From contig NC_092635.1 of the NCBI RefSeq assembly GCF_039555335.1, positions 50,054,052-50,118,051 on the forward strand: a stretch of 64,000 nt of DNA, in the 5' to 3' direction. Every line of letters starts with the position of its first letter. The first letter of the stretch is position 1. The notes beneath the pieces are model-generated. The model was not told where the DNA came from, made no database searches, and saw only the letters and a program-made list of their open reading frames with translations. This DNA is from Amphiura filiformis. Its lineage: Eukaryota; Echinodermata; Ophiuroidea; Amphilepidida; Amphiuridae. Made by a program: the position numbers and the translations under genes. Positions 41,680 to 63,649 of this stretch are shown here, piece by piece.

Positions 41680-41884
41680 AGAGTCCATCATCTGGGTCAG
41701 TAGCTACTTGTGTGAAGATTAATTCTCCATTGCCTATGCTACCATCATCAACATCAGTCACTCTCTTTGCCAGATCAAGTAATTCTATAGGTGTGGTATA
41801 TTGAGGTGCAATAAGTGTCACGTCGTAGACTGGTTGATCAAACTCTGGTGGGTTGTTTGTATCAGATACAATGGTAATTTCAAC
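41680..41884 (-). CDS. Module copy 4, exon m10
   Basis: 205 bp, minus strand CCAAAG|exon|GTAAGT. Encodes VEITIVSDTNNPPEFDQPVY, then DVTLIAPQYTTPIELLDLAK, then RVTDVDDGSIGNGELIFTQV and ATDPDDGL. DTNNPPEF is an EC linker and TDVDDG the DxD motif of the next repeat. Last base T joins TT of the next m1. Confidence 0.92.
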
Positions 41885-42484
41885 CTTTGGTCAAAAAGAG
41901 ATGAATTAGGCATTAGTATACAAGTCTAGACATAGTGTTTGAGGTTCAAGTTAAGCTTACCTAAATTTTATTTTAGTTTTCTGGATCCAATATATGGTAA
42001 ATCACAAAAACAATAGGCTTTTGTATAGAGGGAAATTTGTGCAAGGTTTTTATTAGGTTCTTATTTTTGGCTGTTTGTGGTTAATTTCGGAGCTGCAAAA
42101 ATATTTGTTACCCATAGGCTTTAATGTGTAACTGTTTGTAATCACCATAAACAAACAGATTGGAATTTCCATGCATGTGCCCTCTAAGCATACTCGAATT
42201 CAGCAGACGCTGGTACAGCGTTCAGACCTGGCGACATCTCTCATCATACGTGTGAAGTTTCTTTGTGTACGCTCACGCTTTTTGCACTATTTTTTAGTTT
42301 GCTCACTCGACACCTGACTTAGTGTCGATCCCCACAGGCAACATGCCATGATTCCGCAGTATGGTAATCGAGAAACAGCAAAAGTTAATAATACTGCAAA
42401 AATATCATGCTTTATTCTCATCATCCAGGTACATAAACATTCAAATTGATACAGTAATTAAAATCTAGTCAACTTGACTTACTA

Positions 42485-42575
42485 TTTTTAACTGGCGACG
42501 TTTCATCGCCGCCGAGAAATCAGACGGCTTGAGGAAGCATCCAGGAAAAGATGTGAAACGTCGCCAGTTAAAAAT
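42485..42575. repeat. Hairpin in the copy-4-specific intron
   Basis: tttttaactggcgacgtttc at the left and gaaacgtcgccagttaaaaa at the right around a 50-bp loop. Absent from the same intron in copies 1-3. Confidence 0.75.
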
Positions 42576-42648
42576 ATTAAGTCCAGATGACTAGATTTTT
42601 TAATTATCACTTTGATCGTGCTTTACAGTAATACAAAGTTGAGCTTAC

Positions 42649-42812
42649 CTGCACTTCATCTTTAGAGTTTTCTGGATCAGATGTATGGTATGCAATCACT
42701 CTCATGATATGTGCTCCAATAGCAGGAGTATTAGTCATAGAAAATATTTGACCACTTGCACTGTCAATTCTGAAATCAGCTGATGGCAGGAACGGGTCAC
42801 CAGCACCAGGAT
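42649..42812 (-). CDS. Module copy 4, exon m9 (type I)
   Basis: 164 bp, minus strand TTTCAG|exon|GTAAGC. Encodes PGAGDPFLPSADFRIDSASG, QIFSMTNTPAIGAHIMRVIA and YHTSDPENSKDEVQ. FRIDSASGQI is the EC core; the usual LDRE position is NTPAIG. Confidence 0.92.
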
Positions 42813-43451
42813 CTGAAAATATTAGCCAGACAGAATAAATAAAATGAGAATACAAGGAGCTCAAAACTCAAAAGCTAGGCTTGCAAGAAATTCAATTCTA
42901 AATAAGGTTGGAAACTCATGCCCTATTCTGTTTCTCTCTTACACATATGCACACCTCCACCTACAATCACAATTGATAAAATAGGCATTTATACAATTTA
43001 TTCATTCAATTACAAAATTCTCTTTCAGAGATTACACTTGTATTTCTATTACTCTGGGTTTTCTGCAGTTTCAGGAAAAATTGAATTCCATGACTTATTA
43101 ATGCAGTTTCATTCCCAATTCATAACATTTCTTAACTTTTTTAATAGATCATTTTGCAAAATCCCAAGTTTTTCTCAATTTTAACCTAAATACATCACAC
43201 CGATGCGCACAATGTTACTGCACACTTCAATGTGTGCAGTGATGATCTTCGCATCCAGGACCATGTCTTTATAAGCGATGCTTGCATCAATGTGCATATA
43301 GTTAGGCTAAATTCACAAAGGATTATTTTTATGTATATTTCAGGCATTTTTATTTTTTAATCACAGAATTTTACAGTCCAGATAACTGATCATGAAATAT
43401 TTAATTTTTCCAGGTTTAATATTCCTGCAGGAATCTTATTATTTAACTTAC

Positions 43452-43748
43452 TTGGAGACAGTTCTTGGTTGTTTATTTCAAAAACTGGGTCATCACTACA
43501 TGTACTTGTTGCATCAACATCAATCACTGGTATACCTGTAGTCACATCACTCTGTTTATGTCTCACAATAAATTCTCCAGGTATGATGTCTACAAAACAG
43601 GCCGTGTCTGTTACAAATACCCTGACTTCTATGCTACTGTCATCTATAATCAGATCTGGTTTGTCAGGATTGTAGGCTGTTATGTTTAGTATGTGTGGTT
43701 CTGCTTGGAATTCAAGACGTTGGGCAGCAATTAATGAACATGTTACAC
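43452..43748 (-). CDS. Module copy 4, exon m8
   Basis: 297 bp, minus strand TTCAG|exon|GTAAGT. Spans the end of one EC repeat (ILNITAYNPDKPDLIIDDSS, VRVFVTDTACFVDII) and the start of the next (EFIVRHKQSDVTTGIPVIDV, then DATSTCSDDPVFEI). DVDATSTCSDDP carries the calcium-type acidic residues. Differs from other copies at SDVTTGI. Confidence 0.92.
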
Positions 43749-43936
43749 CTGAAACACAAAAGAAAACTTTATCAACATAATCTCTTCATTTCTTTGACAA
43801 ATTTTGTCTTATCAGATTGCTTTCACATTTGCCGTTGTCTACTTCATAAAAAGTGTAAAAATCCCTTCATGTTGATTAATAAGATTCAAAATTTTTAATT
43901 TCTGGGAAGTGTGGACATGCATATTTTGATTCTTAC

Positions 43937-44033
43937 CATCTGATGACACTAAAAACTTATCAGAACCAGACAGTCTGCACATAATGATGTCATTGGGATA
44001 AATATCATCATCCTCTGGTGTTACTGCTGTTAC
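43937..44033 (-). CDS. Module copy 4, exon m7
   Basis: 97 bp, minus strand CTAG|exon|GTAAGA. Encodes VTAVTPEDDDIYPNDIIMCR then LSGSDKFLVSSD and one extra base. EDDD supplies the calcium-type cluster. Confidence 0.92.
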
Positions 44034-44215
44034 CTAGAAAAAGAAAACAACACATTTTGCTAGTTTGAGAATGAAACATCACTTAACAAAATATTTTCAT
44101 AGTGAAGTATAATATTCTTAAAACTACACGATTAAGCACCTATAATAGAAAAAACTTCAAAAATTACTGTCAAATATCTCATGACATAGCTTCCATAAGG
44201 TCCAGCATTACTTAC

Positions 44216-44359
44216 TTGTACACCAGGGTCAACAGGTGCATAATAGATAACTCTTACTGGTGGAATTGTGAATACTGGTAGCACATCATTGATGTCTCCA
44301 ACATCAATCTCTATATCCAATGGAGGAGTGCTGAGAATAGGGTTGCCATTATCCTTGGC
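44216..44359 (-). CDS. Module copy 4, exon m6
   Basis: 144 bp, minus strand GACAG|exon|GTAAGT, phase 0. Encodes AKDNGNPILSTPPLDIEIDV, GDINDVLPVFTIPPVRVIYY and APVDPGVQ. AKDNGNP turn and DINDV linker are classic EC features. Confidence 0.93.
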
Positions 44360-44789
44360 CTGTCAAATTAAAGGTTAAAAAAAATTGACATTTGTAACAG
44401 CTAGCTCTTGTGATATAATACGTACAGCCTGTATGTGTGTAGTTGAGATGTGATGTTGCAAGAAACCTCTATCAGTGTTTTTTTATGTAATTCAAATATG
44501 CCCTACTTATGTGGTAAATGAGTACATGTAAACTCGGTAATCATGAATGTCAACATGCAACCATCCATATTGAGTTTTTAATATTCAATTGCAGACACAC
44601 ATTTCCTTTTTTTCTCCTTACAGTGGAAGTTGTCACCAACCAAGTGCAAGCAATGGCTATAATGTATTCTTTTACTGTTTTAGATATAGAAACACCATAG
44701 ATATCAAAGGTTCCTGTGGTGTGTATGCAGTTAAAGAGATTTATTGTGTTCTCTTTTGCCAATGTTTACAACTGTGCATGCACCACTAC

Positions 44790-44838
44790 CAACCACACCC
44801 CCCACACCCTACCTCCCTCTACCCCCCCCCCCACAAGA
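44790..44838. repeat. C-rich variable tract, copy 4
   Basis: Poly-C/CA tract just downstream of the m5 donor in gene orientation. Copies 1-3 have the same tract with different lengths of C and (CA)n (61,150-61,203; 55,813-55,859; 50,479-50,520). Confidence 0.8.
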
Positions 44839-44868
44839 AAAACCAGCAATACATGATACTCTACTTAC

Positions 44869-44972
44869 CAGCACAGTTAAGGTGTATGAATCTTGGAATT
44901 CTCTATCCAGTGACCAGTTGAGGTATATATAGCCATAACCAGGTGCACCATCCTTGCGAATCTCAAACTTGT
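44869..44972 (-). CDS. Module copy 4, exon m5
   Basis: 104 bp, minus strand TTTAG|exon|GTAAGT. Encodes DKFEIRKDGAPGYGYIYLNW then SLDREFQDSYTLTVL. SLDREFQDSY is the canonical LDRE motif. Confidence 0.94.
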
Positions 44973-45298
44973 CTAAATCAATAATATTGTAATAATATAA
45001 TTTCTTTAAATATGTTTAAGTTATATTGTTGAAACTTTAACCAAGCATGGTATAAACCCCAAAACCCCATAATGAGCCTATTATTAGTCTCGTTATTGTT
45101 GTTATTATTATCTTATACAACCATGACAATACATTCTAATTTTGTTCATTTGCATACTTTTAGTTTTTAAGACCAAGAGGACCTAGCTAGTATTCAACCT
45201 TTGCAAAATGTATGGCTACTCGAAAGAGATCAATTCTAGAAATACTACCATTTATAGATCAGAATTAAACTTACTCCCTTTTGTGAATTAAAAAGTAC

Positions 45299-45434
45299 CT
45301 TTGTTGTCTCCACTTAATTCATATGTGATCCTGGAGTTATCAGTGCCTGGATAATCCATATCTACTGCTAGGACACGGCAAACATAGGTTTCTAAGACAG
45401 CATTCTCTGGTAAGATTACATTCCCACATTCATT
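45299..45434 (-). CDS. Module copy 4, exon m4
   Basis: 136 bp, minus strand AACAG|exon|GTACTT. Encodes NECGNVILPENAVLETYVCR, VLAVDMDYPGTDNSRITYEL and SGDNK. PENA and AVDMD are the EC calcium motifs. Two Cys flank strands A and B. Confidence 0.93.
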
Positions 45435-45880
45435 CTGTTGAGAATCAAACAAAATATATGATTTGATACTGACAAAATAACAAAAGGCACCAAATTATTG
45501 AAGATCCATTTTTACTTTAATACTAAACTCCTCTTTCCAGTTCGAAATACAGCTTTGAATAACTTTTCTCTACAAAACCAATATAAGTAGCAGTAAATAG
45601 ACATATCTTTAAATATTTTCCCAGTTGTTGCTTCCTAAATCCCTGGTTAGGCATATTATATAAACTTACTTCTGGACTTTTGATCACCATATAGAACCTG
45701 CTTCATTTAGTTCTTGTTTCACAAAATATAATAAGCTAAATTTGCACCAAACATATTTTACAAGAATATTTTCAGTATTGTCTGCAGCTCATACATCTTA
45801 AGTTTGTGGATGTATATTTATGTTTGTTGATGTATCGCTGATGAGCAACTGTGTATTATATTAATGATACTTTTAATTAC

Positions 45881-45976
45881 CGATTCAAATTGTGGTGAAT
45901 TGTCATTGATGTCATTCACATTGACTGTCACAGGTTTATAAGTGGTTCCATCTATGTTGCTGGCAGAGACTAAAAG
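45881..45976 (-). CDS. Module copy 4, exon m3
   Basis: 96 bp, minus strand TGCAG|exon|GTAATT, phase 0. Encodes LLVSASNIDGTTYKPVTVNV then NDINDNSPQFES, the full NDINDN linker. Confidence 0.94.
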
Positions 45977-46242
45977 CTGCATAAGAAAAGACAAAGATAA
46001 AATCAGTTACACTATTACTATGTTGCAAAATATATTGACATTCACTGTAGCTAACACAACATAGACAATCTTTGTATTCCATTTACAATTGTGATGTGCC
46101 CTCAGTAAGAAAAGGCAAAGATAAAATCAGTTACACTATTACTATGTTGCAAAATATGCTGACATTCACTGTAGCTAACACACTTTCATTCCTGGTGAAG
46201 AAAAACTTTGGTCTGTCGCAATCAAATTCTTCACATTTGCTA

Positions 46243-46510
46243 AAGCGAAGAAAAAAAAAACGCTGTTCTACGGGCCCGACCAACCCAGAGTTTGAACAAA
46301 TTGGGAAAAAATTTTTTCCTGTATATATGAATGCCGACCCAAATTTAAGAAATTTCAGGAACAATATTTTTGTATTTTCTCAAATTGCTAATTATTTACA
46401 GATTTTGGTGATTTTTTGGGTCATTTCAAAAAAAAAAAGCTGACCGACTGACCCTAGTTGAAAGGTCCGTCCGCCCGTAGAACAGGGTTTCTTTTTTTAA
46501 ATCGCCTGAG
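46243..46510. repeat. Module MITE, copy 4
   Basis: Ends carry aaaacgctgttctacgggc and gcccgtagaacagggtttc as inverted repeats with an AT-rich interior. Found at the same place in the m2-m3 intron of all four copies, so it inserted before the amplification. A separate 126-bp tandem duplication lies just left of it (45,978-46,183). Confidence 0.8.
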
Positions 46511-46579
46511 CGTAAAATATACCATTTGTAAGGTTGAGGAATAATTAATTATTGACCAGATAAAGGTGTGAATACATAC

Positions 46580-46741
46580 CACATATTGCGGTTGTTCTTC
46601 ATAGTCCAACACAACAGTCGATGTAATTTGTCCAGTAGTATCAATGGCAAAGAATCCTGCATCAATCAACTCATAGGTTATCTCAGTTCCTAAATCTGAT
46701 GTAGCCTGAACCTGACAGATATATGCTGGGGCTGATAACTC
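46580..46741 (-). CDS. Module copy 4, exon m2
   Basis: 162 bp, minus strand AACAG|exon|GTATGT, phase 0. Encodes ELSAPAYICQVQATSDLGTE, ITYELIDAGFFAIDTTGQIT and STVVLDYEEQPQYV. FAIDTTGQI and LDYE mark the EC core. Confidence 0.94.
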
Positions 46742-47069
46742 CTGTTAAAATAATATAAAAACTGATTACTTAAAACCTGACATCTTAATTATGCAACATA
46801 TTTTGTGTGGGGGTGTGTGTACATCATGGGAGACATGTGGGTATGTTCATGTGGAGGAACATTTTGTCCAATTAGTGAAGGTTTATAAATAAATCAATTT
46901 CAAAATCAAAATCAAATCAAAATATGGAAGAGCGTTTGAACAAAACAATTCCATTGACTGTGTTTAATTTCAATTAAATGCTGCCTGTAAAAATAAGCAA
47001 ATTTTAAAATAATTATTTATTGCTTAATATCAACAAATGATTAAACAAAGTAATTACTTTAAAGCTTAC

Positions 47070-47284
47070 CTCATCCACATTGATATCCTGGCAATCATCA
47101 GGACCAAAGATTGGGGGATAAATTCCAGTATCTGGTAGCTCGATATGAATTTGTACCAGTGCATCATCAGACAATGGTGGTACACCTTTATCAGCAACAT
47201 TGACATTTATCTTGACTGTATAAGCTTCAGTGACTTCTATCAATGGTCTGACCAAAAGGACTTCACCAATTATTGTCACTTCAA
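47070..47284 (-). CDS. Module copy 4, exon m1
   Basis: 215 bp, minus strand TTACAG|exon|GTAAGC. As in copy 5 but with GIYPPIFGPDDCQDINVDE in place of GGNPPIFGPDDCEDISVDE. First two bases complete a Phe codon from copy 3 m10. Confidence 0.94.
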
Positions 47285-47892
47285 CTGTAAGGTGATAGAA
47301 TTAAATGCAAATTAATAAAAATGAGCTATAAACTATTATAAATACTATGGGTTCAGAACCATAACAGCTGCAGAAGGTCAACAGCATTATACAAAGTAAG
47401 GTTTGGGCAAGTTAAAAAAATGGACCAGGGCCCATGACACCCATCTCTCGTTTTCCCTATCATGGACTTCTTGTGATATTTATACACAGATTCTGAGTGT
47501 GTGAGGTTCAGAATTTTTGGCATTTGAAACTTAACTATCATCTGTACACACATTTGTTACTTCCTCTACCCTGAATGACAATGAGCTTGTTTAGTTTCAA
47601 AAGAAGAGGTGTTCCGCTTTGTGTTGATTCCCCACATAAAATGGTGTATCTTGCTCTTTCTTTCAAGTTCTTTGCACATTCAAGGTATCCTATTGTATCC
47701 TCCACTGGATTCATTCTTACCCACTTAACCTAACCAGTGAAAGAAATGGGATTTTTACCTGCTTAAACCTTCTTTCTTGTTATCAATTGCGGTTATAAAA
47801 GCCACTCTACTAATTAGCAAATGTATTATAGAAGATCTTTACAAACAATTGTTTTATTTATATAGCTCATAACCTTCTGATTTGTCACTTAC

Positions 47893-48098
47893 AGAGTCCA
47901 TCATCTGGGTCAGTAGCTACTTGTGTAAAGATTAATTCTCCATTGCCTATGTTACCATCATCAACATCAGTCACTCTCTTTGCCAGATCAAGTAATTCTA
48001 TAGGTGTGGTATATTGAGGTGCAATAAGTGTCACGTCGTGAGACTGGTTGATCAAACTCTGGTGGGTTGTTTGTATCAGATACAATGGTAATTTCAAC
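47893..48098 (-). CDS. Module copy 3, exon m10, frameshifted
   Basis: 206 bp against 205 elsewhere. An extra G at about 48,040 (plus strand cgtcgtgagac against cgtcgtagac) shifts the frame after FDQPV. It is not in a long homopolymer. If real, splicing this exon gives a truncated product or forces a skip. Confidence 0.88.
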
Positions 48099-48331
48099 CT
48101 TTGGAAGGACAAAAAATAGATTTGGCTATATTAAGTCTACTCAAGTACTTATGAACAATTATGAACAATCTTTGGGCTATCGAATCCATTCAAGTATGTC
48201 AAGAAAGCAGAGGGTGTGAGATTCAAGTTAGACTTATGTAAACTGTATCTGATACATGATAGGAAAATTGGATGTAACATTAGCAGAGGATCATTTGGTT
48301 TGCTTATTCACACAAATTGTTACACATTTAC

Positions 48332-48495
48332 CTGGACTTCATCTTTAGAGTTTTCTGGATCAGATGTATGGTATGCAATCACTCTCATGATATGTGCTCC
48401 AATAGCAGGAGTATTAGTCATAGAAAATATTTGACCACTTGCACTGTCAATTCTGAAATCAGCTGATGGCAGGAACGGGTCACCAGCACCAGGAT
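48332..48495 (-). CDS. Module copy 3, exon m9 (type I)
   Basis: 164 bp, same type I sequence as copy 4 (SADFRIDSASGQIF). Confidence 0.92.
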
Positions 48496-49136
48496 CTGAA
48501 AATATTATCCAGACAGAATAATAAAATGAGAATACAAGGAGCTCAAAACTCAAAAGCTAGGCTTGCAAGAAATTCAATTCTAAATAAGGTTGGAAACTCA
48601 TGCCCTATTCTGTTTCACTCTTACACATATGCACACCTCCACCTACAATCACAATTGATAAAATAGGCATTTATACAATTTATTCATTCAATTACAAAAT
48701 TATCTTTCAGAGATTACACTTGTATTTCTATTACTCTGGGTTTTCTGCAGTTTCAGGAAAAATTGAATTCCATGACTTATTAATGCAGTTTCATTCCCAA
48801 TTCATAACATTTCTTACCTTTTTTAATAGATCATTTTGCAAAATCCCAAAAGCTTTTCTCAATTTTAACCTAAATACATCACACCGATGCGGACAATGTT
48901 ACTGCACACTTCAATGTGTGCAGTGATGATCTTCGCATCCAGGACCATAGGCGCATAAACGATGCTTGCATCAATGTGCGCATAGTTAGGGCTAAATTCA
49001 CAAAGGATTATTTTTATGTATATTTCAGGCATTTTTATTTTTTAATCACAGAATTTTACAGTCCAGATAACTGATCATGAAATATTTAATTTTTCCAGGT
49101 TTAATATTCCAGCAGGAATCTTATTATTTAACTTAC

Positions 49137-49433
49137 TTGGAGACAGTTCTTGGTTGTTTATTTCAAAAACTGGGTCATCACTACATGTACTTGTTGCATC
49201 AACATCAATCACTGGTACACCTGCACTTACATCACCCTGTTTATATCTCACAATAAACTCTCCAGGTGTGATGTCTACAAAACAGGCAGTGTCTGTTACA
49301 AATACCCTGACTTCTATGCTACTGTCATCTATAATCAGATCTGGTTTGTCAGGATTGTAGGCTGTTATGTTTAGTATATGTGGTTCTGCTTGGAATTCAA
49401 GACGTTGGGCAGCAATTAATGAACATGTTACAC
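49137..49433 (-). CDS. Module copy 3, exon m8
   Basis: 297 bp, open. Reads YKQGDVSAGVPVIDVDATST then CSDD: intermediate between copy 4 and copies 1-2. Confidence 0.92.
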
Positions 49434-49620
49434 CTGAAACACAAAAGAAAACTTTATCAACATAATCTCTTCATTTCTTTGACAAATTTTGTCTTATCAG
49501 ATTGCTTTCACATTTGCCGTTGTCTACTTCATAAATAGTGTAAAAATCCTTCATGTTGATTAATAAGATTCAAAATTTTTAATTTCTGGGAAGTGTGGAC
49601 ATGCATATTTTGATTCTTAC

Positions 49621-49717
49621 CATCTGACGACACTAAAAACTTATCAGAACCAGACAGTCTGCACATAATGATGTCATTGGGATAAATATCATCATCCTCT
49701 GGTGTTACTGCTGTTAC
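49621..49717 (-). CDS. Module copy 3, exon m7
   Basis: 97 bp, open; same protein as copy 4 m7. Confidence 0.92.
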
Positions 49718-49896
49718 CTAGAAAAGAAAACAACACATTTTGCTAGTTTGAGAATGAAACATCACTTAACAAAATATTTTCATAGTGAAGTATAATATTC
49801 TTAAAACTACGATTAAGCACCTATAATAGAAGAAACTTCAAAAATTACTGTCAAATATCTCATGACATAGCTTCCATAAGGTCCAGCATTACTTAC

Positions 49897-50040
49897 TTGT
49901 ACACCAGGGTCAACAGGTGCATAATAGATAACTCTTACTGGTGGAATTGTGAATACTGGTAGCACATCATTGATGTCTCCAACATCAATCTCTATATCCA
50001 ATGGAGGAGTGCTGAGAATAGGGTTGCCATTATCCTTGGC
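49897..50040 (-). CDS. Module copy 3, exon m6
   Basis: 144 bp, open; same protein as copy 4 m6. Confidence 0.93.
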
Positions 50041-50551
50041 CTGTCAAATTAAAGGTTAAAAAAAATTGACATTTGTAACAGCTAGCTCTTGTGAAATAAT
50101 ACGTACAGCCTGTATGTGTGTAGTTGAGATGTGATGTTGCAAGAAACCTCTATCAGTGTTTTTTATGTAATTCAAATATGCCCTACTTATGTGGTAAATG
50201 AGTACATATAAACTTCGGTAATCATGAATGTCAACATGCAACCATCCATATTGAGTTTTTAATATTCAATTGCAGACACACATTTCCCTTTTTTCTCCTT
50301 ACAGTGGAAGTTGTCACCAACCAAGTGCAAGCAATGGCTATAATGTATTCTTTTACTGTTTTAGATATAGAAACACCATAGATATCAAAGGTTCCTGTGG
50401 TGTGTATGCAGTTACAGAGATTTATTGTGTTCTCTTTTGCCAATGTTTACAACTGTGCATGCACCACTACCAACCACACCCCCCCACACCCTACCCACCC
50501 CCCCCACACACACACACAAGAAAAACCAGCAATACATGATACTCTACTTAC

Positions 50552-50655
50552 CAGCACAGTTAAGGTGTATGAATCTTGGAATTCTCTATCCAGTGACCAG
50601 TTGAGGTATATATAGCCATAACCAGGTGCACCATCCTTGCGAATCTCAAACTTGT
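50552..50655 (-). CDS. Module copy 3, exon m5
   Basis: 104 bp, open; SLDREFQDSY kept. Confidence 0.93.
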
Positions 50656-50981
50656 CTAAATCAATAATATTGTAATAATATAATTTCTTTAAATATGTTT
50701 AAGTTATATTGTTGAAACTTTAACCAAGCATGGTATAAACCCCAAAACCCCATAATGAGCCTATTATTAGTCTCGTTATTGTTGTTATTATTATCTTATA
50801 CAACCATGACAATACATTCTAATTTTGTTCATTTGCATACTTTTAGTTTTTAAGACCAAGAGGACCTAGCTAGTATTCAACCTTTGCAAAATGTATGGCT
50901 ACTCGAAAGAGATCAATTCCAGAAATACTACAATTTATAGATCAGAATTAAACTTACTCCCTTTTGTGAATTAAAAAGTAC

Positions 50982-51117
50982 CTTTGTTGTCTCCACTTAA
51001 TTCATATGTGATCCTGGAGTTATCAGTGCCTGGATAATCCATATCTACTGCTAGGACACGGCAAACATAGGTTTCTAAGACAGCATTCTCTGGTAAGATT
51101 ACATTCCCACATTCATT
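50982..51117 (-). CDS. Module copy 3, exon m4
   Basis: 136 bp, open; same protein as copy 4 m4. Confidence 0.93.
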
Positions 51118-53574: not shown

Positions 53575-53779
53575 AGAGTCCATCATCTGGGTCAGTAGCT
53601 ACTTGTGTAAAGATTAATTCTCCATTGCCTATGTTACCATCATCAACATCAGTCACTCTCTTTGCCAGATCAAGTAATTCTATAGGTGTCGTATATTGAG
53701 GTGCAACAAGTGTCACATCGTAGACTGGTTGATCAAACTCTGGTGGGTTGTTTGTATCAGATACAATGGTAATTTCAAC
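53575..53779 (-). CDS. Module copy 2, exon m10
   Basis: 205 bp, open. Plus-strand differences from other copies (gcaacaag, cacatcgtag) give VTLVAPQ-type change only. Confidence 0.92.
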
Positions 53780-54012
53780 CTTTGGAAGGACAAAAAATAG
53801 ATTTGGCTATATTAAGTCTACTCAAGTACTTATGAACAATTATGAACAATCTTTGGGCTATCGAATCCATTCAAGTATGTCAAGAAAGCAGAGGGTGTGA
53901 GATTCAAGTTAGGCTTATGTAAACTGTATCTGATACATGATATGAAAATTGGATGTAACATTAGCAGAGGATCATTTGGTTTGCTTATTCACACAAATTG
54001 TTACACATTTAC

Positions 54013-54170
54013 CTGGACTTCATCTTTAGAGTTTTCTGGATCAGATGTATGGTATGCAATCACACTCATGGTATGTGCTCCAATAGTAGGAGTATCGGAT
54101 ATAGAAGATATTTCACCAGTTGCACTATCAATTGTGAAATCAGTTGATGGCATGAATGGGTCACCAGGAT
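54013..54170 (-). CDS. Module copy 2, exon m9 (type II)
   Basis: 158 bp, two codons shorter than type I. Encodes PGDPFMPSTDFTIDSATGEI, SSISDTPTIGAHTMSVIAYH and TSDPENSKDEVQ. The acceptor is TTTAG rather than TTTCAG. Confidence 0.92.
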
Positions 54171-54468
54171 CTAAAATGTAAGAAGCAAAATTAACAATTT
54201 CTGTCTCCTAGAATGTTCTGATCTGTCTCTATCATCACACATATCCACACAACCACTGCTACTTGTATTCATTATTAATCAAGGATATCTATGCCCCCTT
54301 GATTTTACAACTCAAATCGAGGAAACACACATTTGAAACTTCAAACTTAATCATTACTATTTTACACCAATTTCCAATTGGTTTATGCTGTACTTGCATT
54401 TTATCCTTGATTCTTTTAAAATATGGTTTAATTGGTTTTAGTTTGCTTATCAAGTGTAAATAACTTAC

Positions 54469-54765
54469 TTGGAGACAGTTCTTGGTTGTTTATTTCAAAC
54501 ACTGGGTCATCACCACAGGTACTTGTTGCATCAACATCAATCACTGGTACACCTGCACTTACATCACCCTGTTTATGTCTCACAATGAAATCTCCAGGTA
54601 TGATGTCTACAAAACAGGCAGTGTCTGTTACAAATACCCTGACTTCTATGCTGCTGTCATCTATAATCAAATCTGGTTTATCAGGATTGTAGGCTGTTAT
54701 GTTTAGTATGTGTGGTTCTGCTTGGAATTCAAGACGTTGGGCAGCAATTAATGAACATGTTACAC
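54469..54765 (-). CDS. Module copy 2, exon m8
   Basis: 297 bp, open. GDFIVRHKQGDVSAGVPVID then VDATSTCGDDP. Confidence 0.92.
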
Positions 54766-54952
54766 CTGAAACACAAAAGAAAACTTTATCAACATAATCT
54801 CTTCATTTCTTTGACAAATTTTGTCTTATCAGATTGCTTTCACATTTGCCGTTGTCTACTTCATAAATAGTGTAAAAATCCTTCATGTTGATTAATAAGA
54901 TTCAAAATTTTTAATTTCTGGGAAGTGTGGACATGCATATTTTGATTCTTAC

Positions 54953-55049
54953 CATCTGACGACACTAAAAACTTATCAGAACCAGACAGTCTGCACATAA
55001 TGATGTCATTGGGATAAATATCATCATCCTCTGGTGTTACTGCTGTTAC
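54953..55049 (-). CDS. Module copy 2, exon m7
   Basis: 97 bp, open; same protein as copies 3 and 4. Confidence 0.92.
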
Positions 55050-55231
55050 CTAGAAAAAGAAAACAACACATTTTGCTAGTTTGAGAATGAAACATCACTT
55101 AACAAAATATTTTCATAGTGAAGTATAATATTCTTAAAACTACACAATTAAGCACCTATAATAGAAGAAACTTCAAAAATTACTGTCAAATATCTCATGA
55201 CATAGCTTCCATAAGGTCCAGCATTACTTAC

Positions 55232-55375
55232 TTGTACACCAGGGTCAACAGGTGCATAATAGATAACTCTTACTGGTGGAATTGTGAATACTGGTAGCAC
55301 ATCATTGATGTCTCCAACATCAATCTCTATATCCAATGGAGGAGTGCTGAGAATAGGGTTGCCATTATCCTTGGC
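55232..55375 (-). CDS. Module copy 2, exon m6
   Basis: 144 bp, open; same protein as copy 4 m6. Confidence 0.93.
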
Positions 55376-55889
55376 CTGTCAAATTAAAGGTTAAAAAAAA
55401 TTGACATTTGTAACAGCTAGCTCTTGTGAAATAATACGTACAGCCTGTATGTGTGTAGTTGAGATGTGATGTTGCAAGATACCTCTATCAGTGTTTTTTT
55501 ATGTAATTCAAATATGCCCTACTTATGTGGTAAATGAGTACATGTAAACTCGGTAATCATGAATGTCAACATGCAACCATCCATATTGAGTTTTTAATAT
55601 TCAATTGCAGACACACATTTCCCTTTTTTCTCCTTACAGTGGAAGTTGTCACCAACCAAGTGCAAGCAATGGCTATAATGTATTCTTTTACTGTTTTAGA
55701 TATAGAAACACCATAGATATCAAAGGTTCCTGTGGTGTGTATGCAGTTACAGAGATTTATTGTGTTCTCTTTTGCCAATGTTTACAACTGTGCATGCACC
55801 ACTACCAACCACACCCCCCACACCCTACCTCCCCTCCCCCCCCACACACACACACAAGAAAAACCAGCAATACATGATACTCTACTTAC

Positions 55890-55993
55890 CAGCACAGTTA
55901 AGGTGTATGAATCTTGGAATTCTCTATCCAGTGACCAGTTGAGGTATATATAGCCATAACCAGGTGCACCATCCTTGCGAATCTCAAACTTGT
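55890..55993 (-). CDS. Module copy 2, exon m5
   Basis: 104 bp, open; LDRE motif kept. Confidence 0.93.
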
Positions 55994-56319
55994 CTAAATC
56001 AATAATATTGTAATAATATAATTTCTTTAAATATGTTTAAGTTATATTGTTGAAACTTTAACCAAGCATGGTATAAACCCCAAAACCCCATAATGAGCCT
56101 ATTATTAGTCTCGTTATTGTTGTTATTATTATCTTATACAACCATGACAATACATTCTAATTTTGTTCATTTGCATACTTTTAGGTTTTAAGACCAAGAG
56201 GACCTAGCTAGTATTCAACCTTTGCAAAATGTATGGCTACTCGAAAGAGATCAATTCTAGAAATACTACCATTTATAGATCAGAATTAAACTTACTCCCT
56301 TTTGTGAATTAAAAAGTAC

Positions 56320-56455
56320 CTTTGTTGTCTCCACTTAATTCATATGTGATCCTGGAGTTATCAGTGCCTGGATAATCCATATCTACTGCTAGGACACGGC
56401 AAACATAGGTTTCTAAGACAGCATTCTCTGGTAAGATTACATTCCCACATTCATT
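56320..56455 (-). CDS. Module copy 2, exon m4
   Basis: 136 bp, open; same protein as copy 4 m4. Confidence 0.93.
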
Positions 56456-56901
56456 CTGTTGAGAATCAAAAGAAATATATGGTTTGATACTGACAAAATA
56501 ACAAAAGGCACCAAATTATTGAAGATCCATTTTTACTTTAATACTAAACTCCTCTTTCCAGTTCGAAATACAGCTTTGAATAACTTTTCTCTACAAAACC
56601 AATATAAGTAGCAGTAAATAGACATATCTTTAAATATTTTCCCAGTTGTTGCTTCCTAAATCCTGGTTAGGCATATTATATAAACTTACTTCTGGACTTT
56701 TGATCACCATATAGAACCTGCTTCATTTAGTTCTTGTTTCACAAAATATAATAAGCTAAATTTGCACCAAACATATTTTACAAGAATATTTTCAGTATTG
56801 TCTGCAGCTCATACATCTTAAGTTTGTGGATGTATATTTATGTTTGTTGATGTATACGCTGATGAGCAACTGTGTATTATATTAATGATACTTTTAATTA
56901 C

Positions 56902-56997
56902 CGATTCAAATTGTGGTGAATTGTCATTGATGTCATTCACATTGACTGTCACAGGTTTATAAGTGGTTCCATCTATGTTGCTGGCAGAGACTAAAAG
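56902..56997 (-). CDS. Module copy 2, exon m3
   Basis: 96 bp, open; NDINDN linker kept. Confidence 0.93.
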
Positions 56998-57261
56998 CTG
57001 CATAAGAAAAGACAAAGATAAAATCAGTTACACTATTACTATGTTGCAAAATATATTGACATTCACTGTAGCTAACACAACATAGACAATCTTTGTATTC
57101 CATTTACAATTGTGATGTGCCCTCAGTAAGAAAAGGCAAAGATAAAATCAGTTACACTATTACTATGTTGCAAAATATGCTGACATTCACTGTAGCTAAC
57201 ACACTTTCATTCCTGGTGAAGAAAAACTTTGGTCTGTCGCAATCAAATTCTTCACATTTGC

Positions 57262-57531
57262 AAAAAAGAAGAAAAAAGAAAACGCTGTTCTACGGGCCCG
57301 ACCGACCCAGAGTTTGAACAAATTGGGAAAAAAAATTTTCCTGTATATATGAATGCCGATCCAAATTTAAGAAATTTCAGGAACAATATTTTTGTATTTT
57401 CTCAAATTGCTAATTATTTACAGATTTTGGTGATTTTTGGGTCATTTCCAAAAAAAAAGCTGACCGACTGACCCTAGTTGAAAGGTCCGTCCGCCCGTAG
57501 AACAGGGTTTCTTTTTTTTTTCTTTTTTGCG
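57262..57531. repeat. Module MITE, copy 2
   Basis: Same element; its outer AGGCGA/TCGCCT ends are eroded to A- and T-rich runs in this copy. Confidence 0.78.
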
Positions 57532-57598
57532 TAAAATATACCATTTGTAAGGTTGAGGAATAATTAATTATTGACCAGATAAAGGTGTGAATACATAC

Positions 57599-57760
57599 CA
57601 CATATTGCGGTTGTTCTTCATAGTCCAACACAACAGTCGATGTAATTTGTCCAGTAGTATCAATGGCAAAGAATCCTGCATCAATCAACTCATAGGTTAT
57701 CTCAGTTCCTAAATCTGATGTAGCCTGAACCTGACAGATATATGCTGGGGCTGATAACTC
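57599..57760 (-). CDS. Module copy 2, exon m2
   Basis: 162 bp, open; same protein as copy 4 m2. Confidence 0.93.
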
Positions 57761-58089
57761 CTGTTAAAATAATATAAAAACTGATTACTTAAAACCTGAC
57801 ATCTTAATTATGCAACATATTTTGTGTGGGGGGTGTGTGTACATCATGGGAGACATGTGGGTATGTTCATGTGGAGGAACATTTTGTCCAATTAGTGAAG
57901 GTTTATAAATAAATCAATTTCAAAATCAAAATCAAATCAAAATATGGAAGAGCGTTTGAACAAAACAATTCCATTGACTGTGTTTAATTTCAATTAAATG
58001 CTGCCTGTAAAAATAAGCAAATTTTAAAATAATTATTTATTGCTTAATATCAACAAATGATTAAACAAAGTAATTAGTTTAAAGCTTAC

Positions 58090-58304
58090 CTCATCCACAT
58101 TGATATCCTGGCAATCATCAGGACCAAAGATCGGGGGATAAATTCCAGTATCTGGTAGCTCGATATGAATTTGTACCAGTGCATCATCAGACAATGGTGG
58201 TACACCTTTATCAGCAACATTGACATTTATCTTGACTGTATAAGCTTCAGTGACTTCTATCAATGGTCTGACCAAAAGGACTTCACCAATTATTGTCACT
58301 TCAA
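58090..58304 (-). CDS. Module copy 2, exon m1
   Basis: 215 bp, open; same protein as copies 3 and 4. Confidence 0.93.
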
Positions 58305-58912
58305 CTGTAAGGTGATAGAATTAAATGCAAATTAATAAAAATGAGCTATAAACTATTATAAATACTATGGGTTCAGAACCATAACAGCTGCAGAAGGTCA
58401 ACAGCATTATACAAAGTAAGGTTTGGGCAAGTTAAAAAAATGGACCAGGGCCCATGACACCCATCTCTCGTTTTCCCTATCATGGACTTCTTGTGATATT
58501 TATACACAGATTCTGAGTGTGTGAGGTTCAGAATTTTTGGCATTTGAAACTTAACTATCATCTGTACACACATTTGTTACTTCCTCTACCCTGAATGACA
58601 ATGAGCTTGTTTAGTTTCAAAAGAAGAGGTGTTCCTCTTTGTGTTGATTACCCACATAAAATGGTGTATCTTGCTCTTTCTTTCAAGTTCTTTGCACATT
58701 CAAGGTATCCTATTGTATCCTCCACTGGATTCATTCTTACCCACTTAACCTAACCAGTGAAAGAAATGGGATTTTTACCTGCTTAAACCTTCTTTCTTGT
58801 TATCAATTACGGTTATAAAAGCCACTCTACTAATTAGCAAATGTATTATAGAAGATCTTTACAAACAATTGTTTTATTTATATAGCTCATAACCTTCTGA
58901 TTTGTCACTTAC

Positions 58913-59117
58913 AGAGTCCATCATCTGGGTCAGTAGCTACTTGTGTAAAGATTAATTCTCCATTGCCTATGTTACCATCATCAACATCAGTCACTCTCTT
59001 TGCCAGATCAAGTAATTCTATAGGTGTGGTATATTGAGGTGCAATAAGTGTCACGTCGTAGACTGGTTGATCAAACTCTGGTGGGTTGTTTGTATCAGAT
59101 ACAATGGTAATTTCAAC
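58913..59117 (-). CDS. Module copy 1, exon m10
   Basis: 205 bp, open; protein as copy 4 except DDGNIGN. Confidence 0.92.
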
Positions 59118-59350
59118 CTTTGGAAGGACAAAAAATAGATTTGGCTATATTAAGTCTACTCAAGTACTTATGAACAATTATGAACAATCTTTGGGCTATC
59201 GAATCCATTCAAGTATGTCAAGAAAGCAGAGGGTGTGAGATTCAAGTTAGGTTTATGTAAACTGTATCTGATACATGATATGAAAATTGGATGTAACATT
59301 AGCAGAGGATCATTTGGTTTGCTTATTCACACAAATTGTTACACATTTAC

Positions 59351-59508
59351 CTGGACTTCATCTTTAGAGTTTTCTGGATCAGATGTATGGTATGCAATCA
59401 CACTCATGGTATGTGCTCCAATAGTAGGAGTATCGGATATAGAAGATATTTCACCAGTTGCACTATCAATTGTGAAATCAGTTGATGGCATGAATGGGTC
59501 ACCAGGAT
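59351..59508 (-). CDS. Module copy 1, exon m9 (type II)
   Basis: 158 bp, identical by eye to copy 2 m9. Confidence 0.92.
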
Positions 59509-59806
59509 CTAAAATGTAAGAAGCAAAATTAACAATTTCTGTCTCCTAGAATGTTCTGATCTGTCTCTATCATCACACATATCCACACAACCACTGCTAC
59601 TTGTATTCATTATTAATCAAGGATATCTATGCCCCCTTGATTTTACAACTCAAATCGAGGAAACACACATTTGAAACTTCAAACTTAATCATTACTATTT
59701 TACACCAATTTCCAATTGGTTTATGCTGTACTTGCATTTTATCCTTGATTCTTTTAAAATATGGTTTAATTGGTTTTAGTTTGCTTATCAAGTGTAAATA
59801 ACTTAC

Positions 59807-60103
59807 TTGGAGACAGTTCTTGGTTGTTTATTTCAAACACTGGGTCATCACCACAGGTACTTGTTGCATCAACATCAATCACTGGTACACCTGCACTTAC
59901 ATCACCCTGTTTATGTCTCACAATGAAATCTCCAGGTATGATGTCTACAAAACAGGCAGTGTCTGTTACAAATACCCTGACTTCTATGCTGCTGTCATCT
60001 ATAATCAAATCTGGTTTATCAGGATTGTAGGCTGTTATGTTTAGTATGTGTGGTTCTGCTTGGAATTCAATACGTTGGGCAGCAATTAATGAACATGTTA
60101 CAC
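59807..60103 (-). CDS. Module copy 1, exon m8
   Basis: 297 bp, open; as copy 2 except AAQRIEF for AAQRLEF. Confidence 0.92.
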
Positions 60104-60291
60104 CTGAAACACAAAAGAAAACTTTATCAACATAATCTCTTCATTTCTTTGACAAATTTTGTCTTATCAGATTGCTTTCACATTTGCCGTTGTCTACTTC
60201 ATAAATAGTGTAAAAATCCCTTCATGTTGATTAATAAGATTCAAAATTTTTAATTTCTGGGAAGTGTGGACATGCATATTTTGATTCTTAC

Positions 60292-60387
60292 CATCTGGCG
60301 ACACTAAAACTTATCAGAACCAGACAGTCTGCACATAATGATGTCATTGGGATAAATATCATCATCCTCTGGTGTTACTGCTGTTAC
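60292..60387 (-). CDS. Module copy 1, exon m7, frameshifted
   Basis: 96 bp against 97. One A is missing from the run at 60,306-60,309 (actaaaactt against actaaaaactt), shifting the frame after SGSDK. The acceptor also differs (CTCAAG in place of TTCTAG) but keeps AG. Confidence 0.88.
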
Positions 60388-60569
60388 CTTGAGAAAGAAA
60401 ACAACACATTTTGCTAGTTTGAGAATGAAACATCACTTAACAAAATATTTTCATAGTGAAGTATAATATTCTTAAAACTACACGATTAAGCACCTATAAT
60501 AGAAGAAACTTCAAAAATTACTGTCAAATATCTCATGACATAGCTTCCATAAGGTCCAGCATTACTTAC

Positions 60570-60713
60570 TTGTACACCAGGGTCAACAGGTGCATAATAG
60601 ATAACTCTTACTGGTGGAATTGTGAATACTGGTAGCACATCATTGATGTCTCCAACATCAATCTCTATATCCAATGGAGGAGTGCTGAGAATAGGGTTGC
60701 CATTATCCTTGGC
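60570..60713 (-). CDS. Module copy 1, exon m6
   Basis: 144 bp, open; same protein as copy 4 m6. Confidence 0.93.
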
Positions 60714-61234
60714 CTGTCAAATTAAAGGTTCAAAAAAATTGACATTTGTAACAGCTAGCTCTTGTGAAATAATACGTACAGCCTGTATGTGTGTAGTTGA
60801 GATGTGATGTTGCAAGAAACCTCTATCAGTGTTTTTTTATGTAATTCAAATATGCCCTACTTATGTGGTAAATGAGTACATGTAAACTCGGTAATCATGA
60901 ATGTCAACATGCAACCATCCATATTGAGTTTTTAATATTCAATTGCAGACACACATTTCCCTTTTTTCTCCTTACAGTGGAAGTTGTCACCAACCAAGTG
61001 CAAGCAATGGCTATAATGTATTCTTTTACTGTTTTAGATATAGAAACACCATAGATATCAAAGGTTCCTGTGGTGTGTATGCAGTTACAGAGATTTATTG
61101 TGTTCTCTTTTGCCAATGTTTACAACTGTGCATGCACCACTACCAACCACACACCCCCCCACCCCTACCTCCCTCTACCCCCCCACACACACACACACAC
61201 AAGAAAAACCAGCAATACATGATACTCTACTTAC

Positions 61235-61338
61235 CAGCACAGTTAAGGTGTATGAATCTTGGAATTCTCTATCCAGTGACCAGTTGAGGTATATATAGCC
61301 ATAACCAGGTGCACCATCCTTGCGAATCTCAAACTTGT
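61235..61338 (-). CDS. Module copy 1, exon m5
   Basis: 104 bp, open; LDRE motif kept. Confidence 0.93.
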
Positions 61339-61661
61339 CTAAATCAATAATATTGTAATATAATTTCTTTAAATATGTTTAAGTTATATTGTTGAAACTT
61401 TAACCAAGCATGGTATAAACCCCAAAACCCCATAATGAGCCTATTATTAGTCTCGTTATTGTTGTTATTATTATCTTATACAACCATGACAATACATTCT
61501 AATTTTGTTCATTTGCATACTTTTAGTTTTTAAGACCAAGAGGACCTAGCTAGTATTCAACCTTTGCAAAATGTATGGCTACTCGAAAGAGATCAATTCT
61601 AGAAATACTACCATTTATAGATCAGAATTAAACTTACTCCCTTTTGTGAATTAAAAAGTAC

Positions 61662-61797
61662 CTTTGTTGTCTCCACTTAATTCATATGTGATCCTGGAGT
61701 TATCAGTGCCTGGATAATCCATATCTACTGCTAGGACACGGCAAACATAGGTTTCTAAGACAGCATTCTCTGGTAAGATTATATCAACACATTCATT
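61662..61797 (-). CDS. Module copy 1, exon m4
   Basis: 136 bp, open. Reads NECVDIILPENA instead of NECGNVILPENA, a cluster of changes at 61,781-61,790 found only here. Confidence 0.93.
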
Positions 61798-62243
61798 CTG
61801 TTGAGAATCAAAAGAAATATATGGTTTGATACTGACAAAATAACAAAAGGCACCAAATTATTGAAGATCCATGTTTACTTTAATACTAAACTCCTCTTTC
61901 CAGTTCGAAATACAGCTTTGAATAACTTTTCTCTACAAAACCAATATAAGTAGCAGTAAATAGACATATCTTTAAATATTTTCCCAGTTGTTGCTTCCTA
62001 AATCCTGGTTAGGCATATTATATAAACTTACTTCTGGACTTTTGATCACCATATAGAACCTGCTTCATTTAGTTCTTGTTTCACAAAATATAATAAGCTA
62101 AATTTGCACCAAACATATTTTACAAGAATATTTTCAGTATTGTCTGCAGCTCATACATCTTAAGTTTGTGGATGTTTATTTATGTTTGTTGATGTATACG
62201 CTGATGAGCAACTGTGTATTATATTAATGATACTTTTAATTAC

Positions 62244-62339
62244 CGATTCAAATTGTGGTGAATTGTCATTGATGTCATTCACATTGACTGTGACAGGTTT
62301 ATAAGTGGTTCCATCTATGTTGCTGGCAGAGACTAAAAG
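62244..62339 (-). CDS. Module copy 1, exon m3
   Basis: 96 bp, open; NDINDN linker kept. Confidence 0.93.
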
Positions 62340-62603
62340 CTGCATAAGAAAAGACAAAGATAAAATCAGTTACACTATTACTATGTTGCAAAATATATTG
62401 ACATTCACTGTAGCTAACACAACATAGACAATCTTTGTATTCCATTTACAATTGTGATGTGCCCTCAGTAAGAAAAGGCAAAGATAAAATCAGTTACACT
62501 ATTACTATGTTGCAAAATATGCTGACATTCACTGTAGCTAACACACTTTCATTCCTGGTGAAGAAAAACTTTGGTCTGTCGCAATCAAATTCTTCACATT
62601 TGC

Positions 62604-62876
62604 TAAGGCGAAGAAAAAAGAAAACGCTGTTCTTACGGGCCCGACCGACCCAGAGTTTGAACAAATTGGGAAAAAAAATTTTCCTGTATATATGAATGCC
62701 GATCCAAATTTAAGAAATTTCAGGAACAATATTTTTGTATTTTCTCAAATTGCTAATTATTTACAGATTTTGGTGATTTTTTGGGTCATTTCAAAAAAAA
62801 AAAAAGCTGACCGACTGACCCTAGTTGAAAGGTCCGTCCGCCCGTAGAACAGGGTTTCTTTTTTTCGTCGCCTGAG
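62604..62876. repeat. Module MITE, copy 1
   Basis: Same element, with AGGCGA and TCGCCT ends intact. Confidence 0.8.
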
Positions 62877-62945
62877 CGTAAAATATACCATTTGTAAGGT
62901 TGAGGAATAATTAATTATTGACCAGATAAAGGTGTGAATACATAC

Positions 62946-63107
62946 CACATATTGCGGTTGTTCTTCATAGTCCAACACAACAGTCGATGTAATTTGTCCA
63001 GTAGTATCAATGGCAAAGAATCCTGCATCAATCAACTCATAGGTTATCTCAGTTCCTAAATCTGATGTAGCCTGAACCTGACAGATATATGCTGGGGCTG
63101 ATAACTC
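62946..63107 (-). CDS. Module copy 1, exon m2
   Basis: 162 bp, open; same protein as copy 4 m2. Confidence 0.93.
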
Positions 63108-63435
63108 CTGTTAAAATAATATAAAAACTGATTACTTAAAACCTGACATCTTAATTATGCAACATATTTTGTGTGGGGGTGTGTGTACATCATGGGAGAC
63201 ATGTGGGTATGTTCATGTGGAGGAACATTTTGTCCAATTAGTGAAGGTTTATAAATAAATCAATTTCAAAATCAAAATCAAATCAAAATATGGAAGAGCG
63301 TTTGAACAAAACAATTCCATTGACTGTGTTTAATTTCAATTAAATGCTGCCTGTAAAAATAAGCAAATTTTAAAATAATTATTTATTGCTTAATATCAAC
63401 AAATGATTAAACAAAGTAATTAGTTTAAAGCTTAC

Positions 63436-63649
63436 CTCATCCACATTGATATCCTGGCAATCATCAGGACCAAAGATTGGGGATAAATTCCAGTATCTGG
63501 TAGCTCGATATGAATTTGTACCAGTGCATCATCAGACAATGGTGGTACACCTTTATCAGCAACATTGACATTTATCTTGACTGTATAAGCTTCAGTGACT
63601 TCTATCAATGGTCTGACCAAAAGGACTTCACCAATTATTGTCACTTCAA
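63436..63649 (-). CDS. Module copy 1, exon m1, frameshifted
   Basis: 214 bp against 215. One G is missing from the run at 63,479-63,482, changing YPPIFGPDDC to a shifted frame after GIYP. Confidence 0.88.

What the first reader, a model, noticed from the sequence alone, without database searches (positions are those of the whole stretch)
41680..63649. Recent, frame-neutral amplification of a ten-exon, five-EC-repeat module in a CDH23-like gene
Seen: four copies of m1-m10 at 5.3-5.7 kb spacing, near-identical in exons and introns, each 1,620 or 1,614 coding bases and entering and leaving in the same splice phase. Known: cadherin genes usually grow by single EC repeats, and CDH23 is length-conserved in vertebrates. 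Inferred: unequal crossing-over is lengthening the extracellular stalk in steps of about 540 residues, so length may vary between individuals or be adjusted by skipping whole modules.
Basis: partly seen in the sequence, partly recalled or inferred. Interest (0 to 1): 0.88.

Follow-up and report, generated by a model that had tools for sequence, protein, structure and literature searches.

The report
Tandemly amplified five-domain cadherin exon module
A long animal cell-adhesion (cadherin) gene carries at least four near-identical head-to-tail copies of a ten-exon block that codes for about five protein domains, so the protein has probably been lengthened recently in large in-frame steps, although the sequence as given has small breaks in two copies that need checking.

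Summary
The array is real in this sequence. On the minus strand, four copies of a ten-exon cadherin module follow one another at about 5.3-5.7 kb spacing, 98.2-98.8% identical over kilobases. The array runs off the window's right edge, so four is a minimum. A unit of 1,614/1,620 bases keeps the frame and adds 538/540 residues (two clear cadherin domains, about three degenerate).

Three corrections. (1) Eight of ten introns are alike (98.7-99.2% overall), but the m9-m10 and m10-m1 introns each exist in two essentially unrelated versions; copy c2 switches type inside exon m10, a recombination scar. (2) Copies c4 and c1 carry three 1-base coding indels; two of four units are open. Error and real decay cannot be told apart here. 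(3) A fifth, older copy (m1-m4) lies downstream; its exon m1 is about 98-99% identical to the array while its next intron differs by 19% or more, suggesting exon-confined gene conversion.

Best reading: unequal crossing-over plus gene conversion lengthens a long transmembrane cadherin, like LPA KIV-2 repeats. Polymorphism, module skipping and CDH23 identity are untested. The protein database was off; all paper searches failed.

The parts
59118..64000 (-). Module copy c4, cut by the window end (m2-m10 inside; its m1 lies outside). Exons m2 63649-63436, m3 63107-62946, m4 62339-62244, m5 61797-61662, m6 61338-61235, m7 60713-60570, m8 60387-60292, m9 60103-59807, m10 59508-59351
   Evidence: two 1-base deletions (m2 near 63482, m8 near 60309)
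53780..59117 (-). Module copy c3: m1 59117-58913, m2 58304-58090, m3 57760-57599, m4 56997-56902, m5 56455-56320, m6 55993-55890, m7 55375-55232, m8 55049-54953, m9 54765-54469, m10 54170-54013; 1,614 bp, open
   Evidence: all GT-AG, no stop, 538 codons
48099..53779 (-). Module copy c2: m1 53779-53575, m2 52967-52753, m3 52425-52264, m4 51659-51564, m5 51117-50982, m6 50655-50552, m7 50040-49897, m8 49717-49621, m9 49433-49137, m10 48495-48332; 1,620 bp, open; recombinant (type A m9-m10, type B intron after m10)
41885..48098 (-). Module copy c1: m1 48098-47893 (1-base insertion near 48040), m2 47284-47070, m3 46741-46580, m4 45976-45881, m5 45434-45299, m6 44972-44869, m7 44359-44216, m8 44033-43937, m9 43748-43452, m10 42812-42649; followed by a 764-bp intron found only here
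   Evidence: this m1 appears as the 'm1n' of row c2
36900..41884 (-). Older diverged copy c0 with m1 41884-41680 (99.0% to c3), m2 39006-38792 (94.9%), m3 37821-37657 (81%), m4 36995-36900 (85%)
41657..41890 (-). Probable gene-conversion tract in c0: exon m1 plus 23 bp of the following and 6 bp of the preceding intron, 97.0-98.3% identical to the array, while alignable blocks of the next intron are 73-76% identical
   Evidence: 2 of 205 against 69 of 369 mismatches, Fisher p about 3e-12
48332..48383 (-). Stretch of c2 exon m10 in which the module switches from type A to type B
   Evidence: 17 of the 18 c1-c3 m10 differences lie in the first 107 bp of the 158-bp exon; c2 and c3 differ at 2 sites in the following intron
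41931..42006 (-). Possible decayed relic of an older m10 3' part and its intron inside the c1 m10-m1 intron (weak)
   Evidence: searches (35 bp, 83%, E 1.8e-4; 41 bp, 76-78%), colinear
18321..36899 (-). Modelled downstream single-copy exons of the same gene: 34034-33905, 31954-31671, 30304-30164, 28054-27939, 24957-24857, 24246-24088, 23169-23003, 21076-20825, 19986-19898, 18422-18321; about four further cadherin-like domains and a segment without Pfam match; phase-consistent, no stop
   Evidence: chosen by hand from 25 scored candidates below 42 kb
6786..6965 (-). Candidate transmembrane exon (hydrophobic stretch by eye; link to the gene inferred)
   Evidence: no Pfam match

Best explanation
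A long, probably single-pass transmembrane cadherin gene of an unidentified animal holds a young tandem array of a ten-exon, roughly five-domain module, with at least four copies in the window. Shown: head-to-tail order, whole-codon unit length in the open copies, canonical splice sites in every modelled exon, about 1% divergence over eight introns, a mosaic of two older module types with a switch inside exon m10, and an older fifth copy downstream. Inferred: copies arose by unequal crossing-over between misaligned modules and are kept alike by gene conversion, some of it confined to exons where introns no longer match; each event lengthens or shortens the extracellular stalk by about 540 residues without breaking the frame. 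Inferred: three of five domains per module lack LDRE-like and DxND(N) calcium motifs, so added modules may add bendable as well as stiff links. Inferred: the 1-base frameshifts are more likely residual sequence errors in a repeat that is hard to polish than true nulls.
For: Long 98-99% direct repeats. Four copies of each exon and GT-AG at all 39 modelled exons of the array. Units of 1,614 (c3) and 1,620 bp (c2), phase 0 to phase 0. In c1-c3, m2-m8 show 2-3 synonymous and no nonsynonymous differences per pair (734 nonsynonymous sites), and exons differ less than introns in those three, not independent, pairs (0.21-0.31% against 0.89-1.33%, p 0.002-0.03). A/B block and switch in m10. c0 m1 with 2 of 205 differences against 69 of 369 in the adjacent intron blocks. 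Downstream 14-exon chain from c0 m1 open and phase-consistent. Pfam cadherin matches above cut-off for two of five module domains, for two of four further downstream domains, and for the c0 exons m2-m4.
Against: As assembled, the reading from c4 m2 stops after 87 of 2,827 codons. The three pairs with c4 do not show the exon/intron contrast (exons 0.74-0.84%; p 0.2-1.0), and c4 has three nonsynonymous differences from c3 in m3-m7. m10 differs between types A and B with dN about equal to dS (0.109 against 0.09-0.125), so that part shows no constraint. No reads, depth, transcripts or second individual were available. Two of five module domains have no Pfam match and one is below cut-off. Exon-confined identity could also come from routes other than conversion.
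Confidence: 0.75

Rival explanations
1. The array is wholly or partly an assembly artefact: alleles or mis-resolved repeat copies were placed in tandem, and the true genome has fewer modules.
For: Copies differ by about 1%, within the range of allelic differences in many invertebrates (recalled). In the m9-m10 block the copies pair two and two, c1/c2 against c3/c4, as two stacked haplotypes of two modules each would. Single-base indels in coding exons point to imperfect sequence in this region.
Against: In the m1-m8 part no two-and-two pairing is seen, and the m10-m1 intron splits one against three. The switch point inside m10 is not easily made by stacking two alleles. False haplotype duplication usually gives two copies, not four (recalled).
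Confidence: 0.12
2. The frameshifts are real: copies c4 and c1 are decaying, and this haplotype or gene makes a truncated protein or none (compatible with a real array).
For: Three 1-base indels, one of them not in a homopolymer; c4 shows three nonsynonymous differences in m3-m7 and no exon/intron contrast. Loss-of-function variants inside repeat copies are known in LPA KIV-2 (PMC6314250 abstract).
Against: c1 m2-m8 has no nonsynonymous difference from c2 or c3. All modelled splice sites are canonical and the downstream chain is open. Two of three indels lie in C5 or T5 runs, typical error sites (recalled).
Confidence: 0.15
3. The near-identity reflects old duplicates held alike by long-lasting gene conversion rather than recent copying.
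For: Two introns are essentially unrelated between copies whose other introns are near-identical, so some module types are old; c0 m1 looks converted.
Against: Eight introns are alike across all four copies, 0.82-1.33% different overall; long-term conversion alone would rarely keep whole introns so uniform (judgement).
Confidence: 0.25

Closest known systems
LPA kringle IV type 2 (KIV-2) repeat
   Same: Head-to-tail, multi-exon domain module of almost the same period (5.6 kb), with sequence subtypes (KIV-2A, B, C), of which B also differs in introns, inside an extracellular repeat protein (PMC6314250: outline with abstract and start of introduction, sections 6 and 19 read).
   Different: KIV-2 has two exons (one kringle domain, recalled) per unit, 1 to >40 copies per allele, and known polymorphism. 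Here ten exons and about five domains per unit; polymorphism unknown; cadherin instead of kringle.
CR1 long homologous repeats; nebulin (NEB) and titin triplicate regions (recalled, no paper seen)
   Same: Several exons coding for several domains are amplified as one block in frame, with copies alike through exchange.
   Different: Different domain families; human size or copy variants documented there (recalled), nothing of the kind tested here.
CDH23 / PCDH15-type long cadherins (architecture recalled)
   Same: Many cadherin domains with some degenerate calcium sites, then a non-cadherin segment and a candidate transmembrane stretch; CDH23 and PCDH15 are among the PDB matches.
   Different: CELSR1, several protocadherins and PCDH15 score higher than CDH23; orthology not established; a near-identical five-domain block is not known to me in vertebrate CDH23 (recalled).

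Membership tests
Cadherin superfamily | Cadherin domain (PF00028) above curated cut-off | tested here: met
   Module domains b and c score 35.3 and 59.0 against a cut-off of 28.8; downstream D1 48.0 and D2 51.9, c0 m2-m4 47.4.
Cadherin superfamily | All five repeats of the module are cadherin domains | tested here: inconclusive
   Domain a 17.6 bits (below cut-off), d and e no Pfam match; d+e give one PDB match under 0.001, protocadherin gamma B4, E 7.9e-5 for the whole, with its two stretches weak on their own (0.11 and 7.2).
Cadherin superfamily | Calcium-binding motifs (DxNDN, LDRE-like, DxD; motif names recalled) | tested here: inconclusive
   By a loose pattern count, LDRE-like and DxND(N) occur in b and c; a, d and e lack both, though a and e keep a DxD-type motif.
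CDH23 orthologue | Closest sequence relative is CDH23 | tested here: inconclusive
   PDB searches rank CELSR1, several protocadherins and PCDH15 above CDH23 in both; FAT4 ranks above CDH23 only. PDB chains differ in length and coverage, and the protein database was off.
CDH23 orthologue | About 27 cadherin domains, membrane-adjacent domain, one transmembrane helix (recalled) | not testable with these tools
   Gene is cut at the right edge; a 63-residue segment after the last domain has no Pfam match, and a query of last domain plus this segment gave one PDB match, HPr at E 0.019, judged chance; the TM exon is a candidate only.
FAT/CELSR type | EGF and laminin-G domains before the membrane (recalled) | tested here: inconclusive
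   None found in the 20 minus-strand reading frames scanned between 2.7 and 18.3 kb (four weak matches to other families, all below cut-off); these are 20 of the 210 frames of 42 aa or more below 42 kb listed.
In-frame multi-exon repeat arrays (LPA KIV-2 type) | Head-to-tail multi-exon units of whole-codon length with near-identical introns | tested here: met
   near-identity met for 8 of 10 introns, whole-codon length for 2 of 4 units as given.
In-frame multi-exon repeat arrays (LPA KIV-2 type) | Copy number varies between individuals | not testable with these tools
   One sequence only.

The most novel reading that the evidence does not exclude
The cadherin stalk is a length-polymorphic ruler: module number differs between haplotypes of this animal in steps of five domains, each adding calcium-poor hinge domains, while exon-confined gene conversion keeps the protein uniform across modules whose introns have already become unrelated.
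Probability: 0.35. Interest if true: 0.7.

Novelty: new member of a known kind. Interest (0 to 1): 0.47.

Why it matters
If real and polymorphic, it would give a natural series of one adhesion or mechanosensory cadherin that differs in length by whole five-domain blocks, so that effects of stalk length and flexibility could be tested. It also gives a clear sequence record of exchange between modules and of conversion limited to exons. It warns that genome projects may mis-assemble or mis-annotate such genes.

Tried and rejected
Chance similarity: excluded by kilobase-long 98-99% matches. Plus-strand reading: of frames of 35 aa or more, three on the plus strand held a loose motif and none a DxNDN, against 35 frames on the minus strand, about 31 of them cadherin-like by eye. 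First guesses of the m6 start at 55988 and the m10 start at 54207 broke the phase; 55993 and 54170 keep it. My m10 ends for c2/c1 were one base short (163 bp); 164 is right. Rfam: no match at gathering score. Phages, near mode, DNA of c3: no match. Viral contigs: two pattern matches, no relative. C-terminal segment against PDB: one match (HPr, E 0.019), judged chance. Twenty reading frames left of 18.3 kb: four weak Pfam matches, none above cut-off. No tree of copies was built because the mosaic makes one tree misleading. No structure was predicted because spliced joins are not read letter for letter from the window.

The downstream exons come from my own splice and codon score, trained on 14 exons of this gene. 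It gave 25 non-overlapping candidates below 42 kb. I kept 14, moved the start of one (21131 to 21076), and dropped the other 11: four copies within the 166-bp array, six others judged not to belong, and the transmembrane candidate, kept apart.

The contrast 'three frameshifts in the array, none in the 2,222-bp downstream chain' was considered as proof of sequencing error and rejected: at the array's rate (3 in 6,262 bp) about one would be expected downstream.
Full report
OBSERVATION. Self-comparison shows a head-to-tail repeat from about 41.66 kb to the window's end, with matches of 98.2-98.8% identity over up to 9.6 kb. The gene lies on the minus strand, so gene order runs from high to low coordinates: c4, c3, c2, c1, then an older copy c0. 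Exon m2 starts are spaced 5,345, 5,337 and 5,683 bp; exon m1 starts 5,338, 5,681 and 6,214 bp, the last being longer because a 764-bp intron separates c1's m10 from the next m1. Homology continues to base 64000, so the array is open at that side and the number of copies is at least four.

GENE MODEL. In c3 the ten exons are 205, 215, 162, 96, 136, 104, 144, 97, 297 and 158 bp, sum 1,614, start and end in phase 0, with 538 codons and no stop. In c1 and c2, m10 is 164 bp. All 39 exons of the four copies and all 14 of the downstream chain have AG before and GT after them. As given, c3 (1,614) and c2 (1,620) are open. c1 has a 1-base insertion in m1 (total 1,621), and c4 has 1-base deletions in m2 (a C5 run shortened to C4) and m8 (T5 to T4). 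Read through in order, the frame from c4 m2 stops after 87 of 2,827 codons. I think sequencing or polishing error is more likely, but the data do not decide it.

MOSAIC. In the part before m9 (from inside the m1-m2 intron, of which c4 holds only about 350 bp), copies differ by 0.82-1.33% in introns (2,921-2,931 bp compared per pair) and 0.21-0.84% in exons (952-954 bp). The differences are uneven: the m3-m4 and m6-m7 introns have 6-19 per pair, the other six 0-5. For the three pairs among c1, c2 and c3 exons differ less than introns (p 0.002-0.03, pairs not independent); for the three pairs with c4 they do not (p 0.2-1.0). In c1-c3, m2-m8 have 2-3 synonymous and no nonsynonymous differences per pair. 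Beyond that the copies split. The m9-m10 intron is 639-641 bp in c1/c2 (type A, 96.9% alike) and 298 bp in c3/c4 (type B, identical), with no blastn match between A and B. m10 differs at 17-18 sites between types, 12 nonsynonymous against 3-4 synonymous among codons compared (dN 0.109, dS 0.09-0.125), so there is no sign of constraint on that difference. The m10-m1 intron is 233 bp and 98.7-99.6% alike in c2, c3 and c4, but 764 bp and nearly unrelated in c1 (one 41-bp match). So c2 is type A up to m10 and type B after it. 17 of 18 c1-c3 differences in m10 lie in its first 107 bp, and c2 differs from c3 at two sites in the following intron. The switch therefore lies in about the last 50 bp of m10. 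This is what a crossover, or the end of a conversion tract, inside shared exon sequence would leave.

OLDER LAYERS. c0 holds m1-m4 only, followed by other cadherin exons. Its m3 and m4 have dS 0.76 and 0.43 to c3 and m2 0.11-0.13 to the array, but m1 0.02 (c3) and 0.065 (c2). Exon m1 differs from c3 at 2 of 205 bases while alignable blocks of the next intron differ at 69 of 369 (p about 3e-12). The near-identical tract (41657-41890) ends 23 bp after and 6 bp before the exon. Gene conversion confined to the exon, where flanking introns no longer match, is the simplest explanation. Inside the c1 m10-m1 intron a weak relic of an m10 end and its intron is seen (42006-41931), consistent with an earlier lost unit.

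PROTEIN. Two of the five domains per module are clear cadherin domains (35.3 and 59.0 bits, cut-off 28.8), one is below cut-off (17.6), two give no Pfam match. The last two together give one weak match to protocadherin gamma B4 (E 7.9e-5; single stretches 0.11 and 7.2). A loose motif count finds LDRE-like and DxND(N) motifs in b and c but not in a, d or e. Downstream, ten modelled single-copy exons (34034 to 18321) continue in phase with no stop and code for four more cadherin-like domains (two above the Pfam cut-off: 48.0 and 51.9; two below: 15.3 and 17.2), then a segment without Pfam match. A hydrophobic candidate transmembrane exon lies at 6965-6786. No EGF or laminin-G domain was found in the 20 frames scanned between 2.7 and 18.3 kb. 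'Long cadherin' is supported, 'transmembrane' is likely; 'CDH23-like' is only a possibility, since PDB matches rank CELSR1, several protocadherins and PCDH15 above CDH23, and the protein database could not be queried.

MECHANISM. Shown: a tandem array with mosaic structure and, in its open copies, frame-neutral units. Inferred: misaligned modules exchange by unequal crossing-over, adding or removing about 540 residues per event, and gene conversion keeps exons alike. Modular length would be tolerated because each unit is a whole number of codons and of domain repeats. Whether protein length varies between individuals or by splicing was not tested.

COMPARISON. The nearest match in kind that I could read about is LPA KIV-2: 5.6-kb units with two exons, 1 to more than 40 copies per allele, more than 40 isoforms, and a subtype B that also differs in introns (PMC6314250, outline with abstract and start of introduction, sections 6 and 19). 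[quoted passage not shown] CR1, nebulin and titin arrays are recalled. I make no claim that cadherin arrays of this kind are unreported: all seven paper searches failed.

VERDICT.

Noticed in passing
31824-32986: Seven tandem copies of a 166-bp unit (97% matches) that holds the acceptor site and first part of the modelled coding exon 31954-31671; two copies carry a frame change, and only the last leads into the full exon. Units abut as AG|GT, so the same site could serve as acceptor or donor.
   Followed up: partly
22029-23082: Several partial tandem copies of a piece of the modelled exon 23169-23003 (LGALGNKYYIGIADD...), periods 351 and 134 bp; another case of repeated partial exons in the same gene.
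   Followed up: no
6548-6861: 64- and 126-bp tandem repeats at the end of the candidate transmembrane exon, which duplicate its donor side.
   Followed up: no
39231-39841; also 1744-2186, 17127-17471, 27442-27650: Self-complementary (83%) element of about 610 bp with related pieces elsewhere in the window; looks like a foldback or MITE-type mobile element. A smaller palindromic stretch (42441-42615) sits in the c1-only intron.
   Followed up: no
34614-36351: Inverted repeat of about 680 bp, 93.5% alike, arms 34614-35287 and 35679-36351.
   Followed up: no
61662-61797: c4 exon m5 has four substitutions unique to that copy, giving three neighbouring amino-acid changes; perhaps a patch from a copy outside the window, or poor sequence.
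   Followed up: partly
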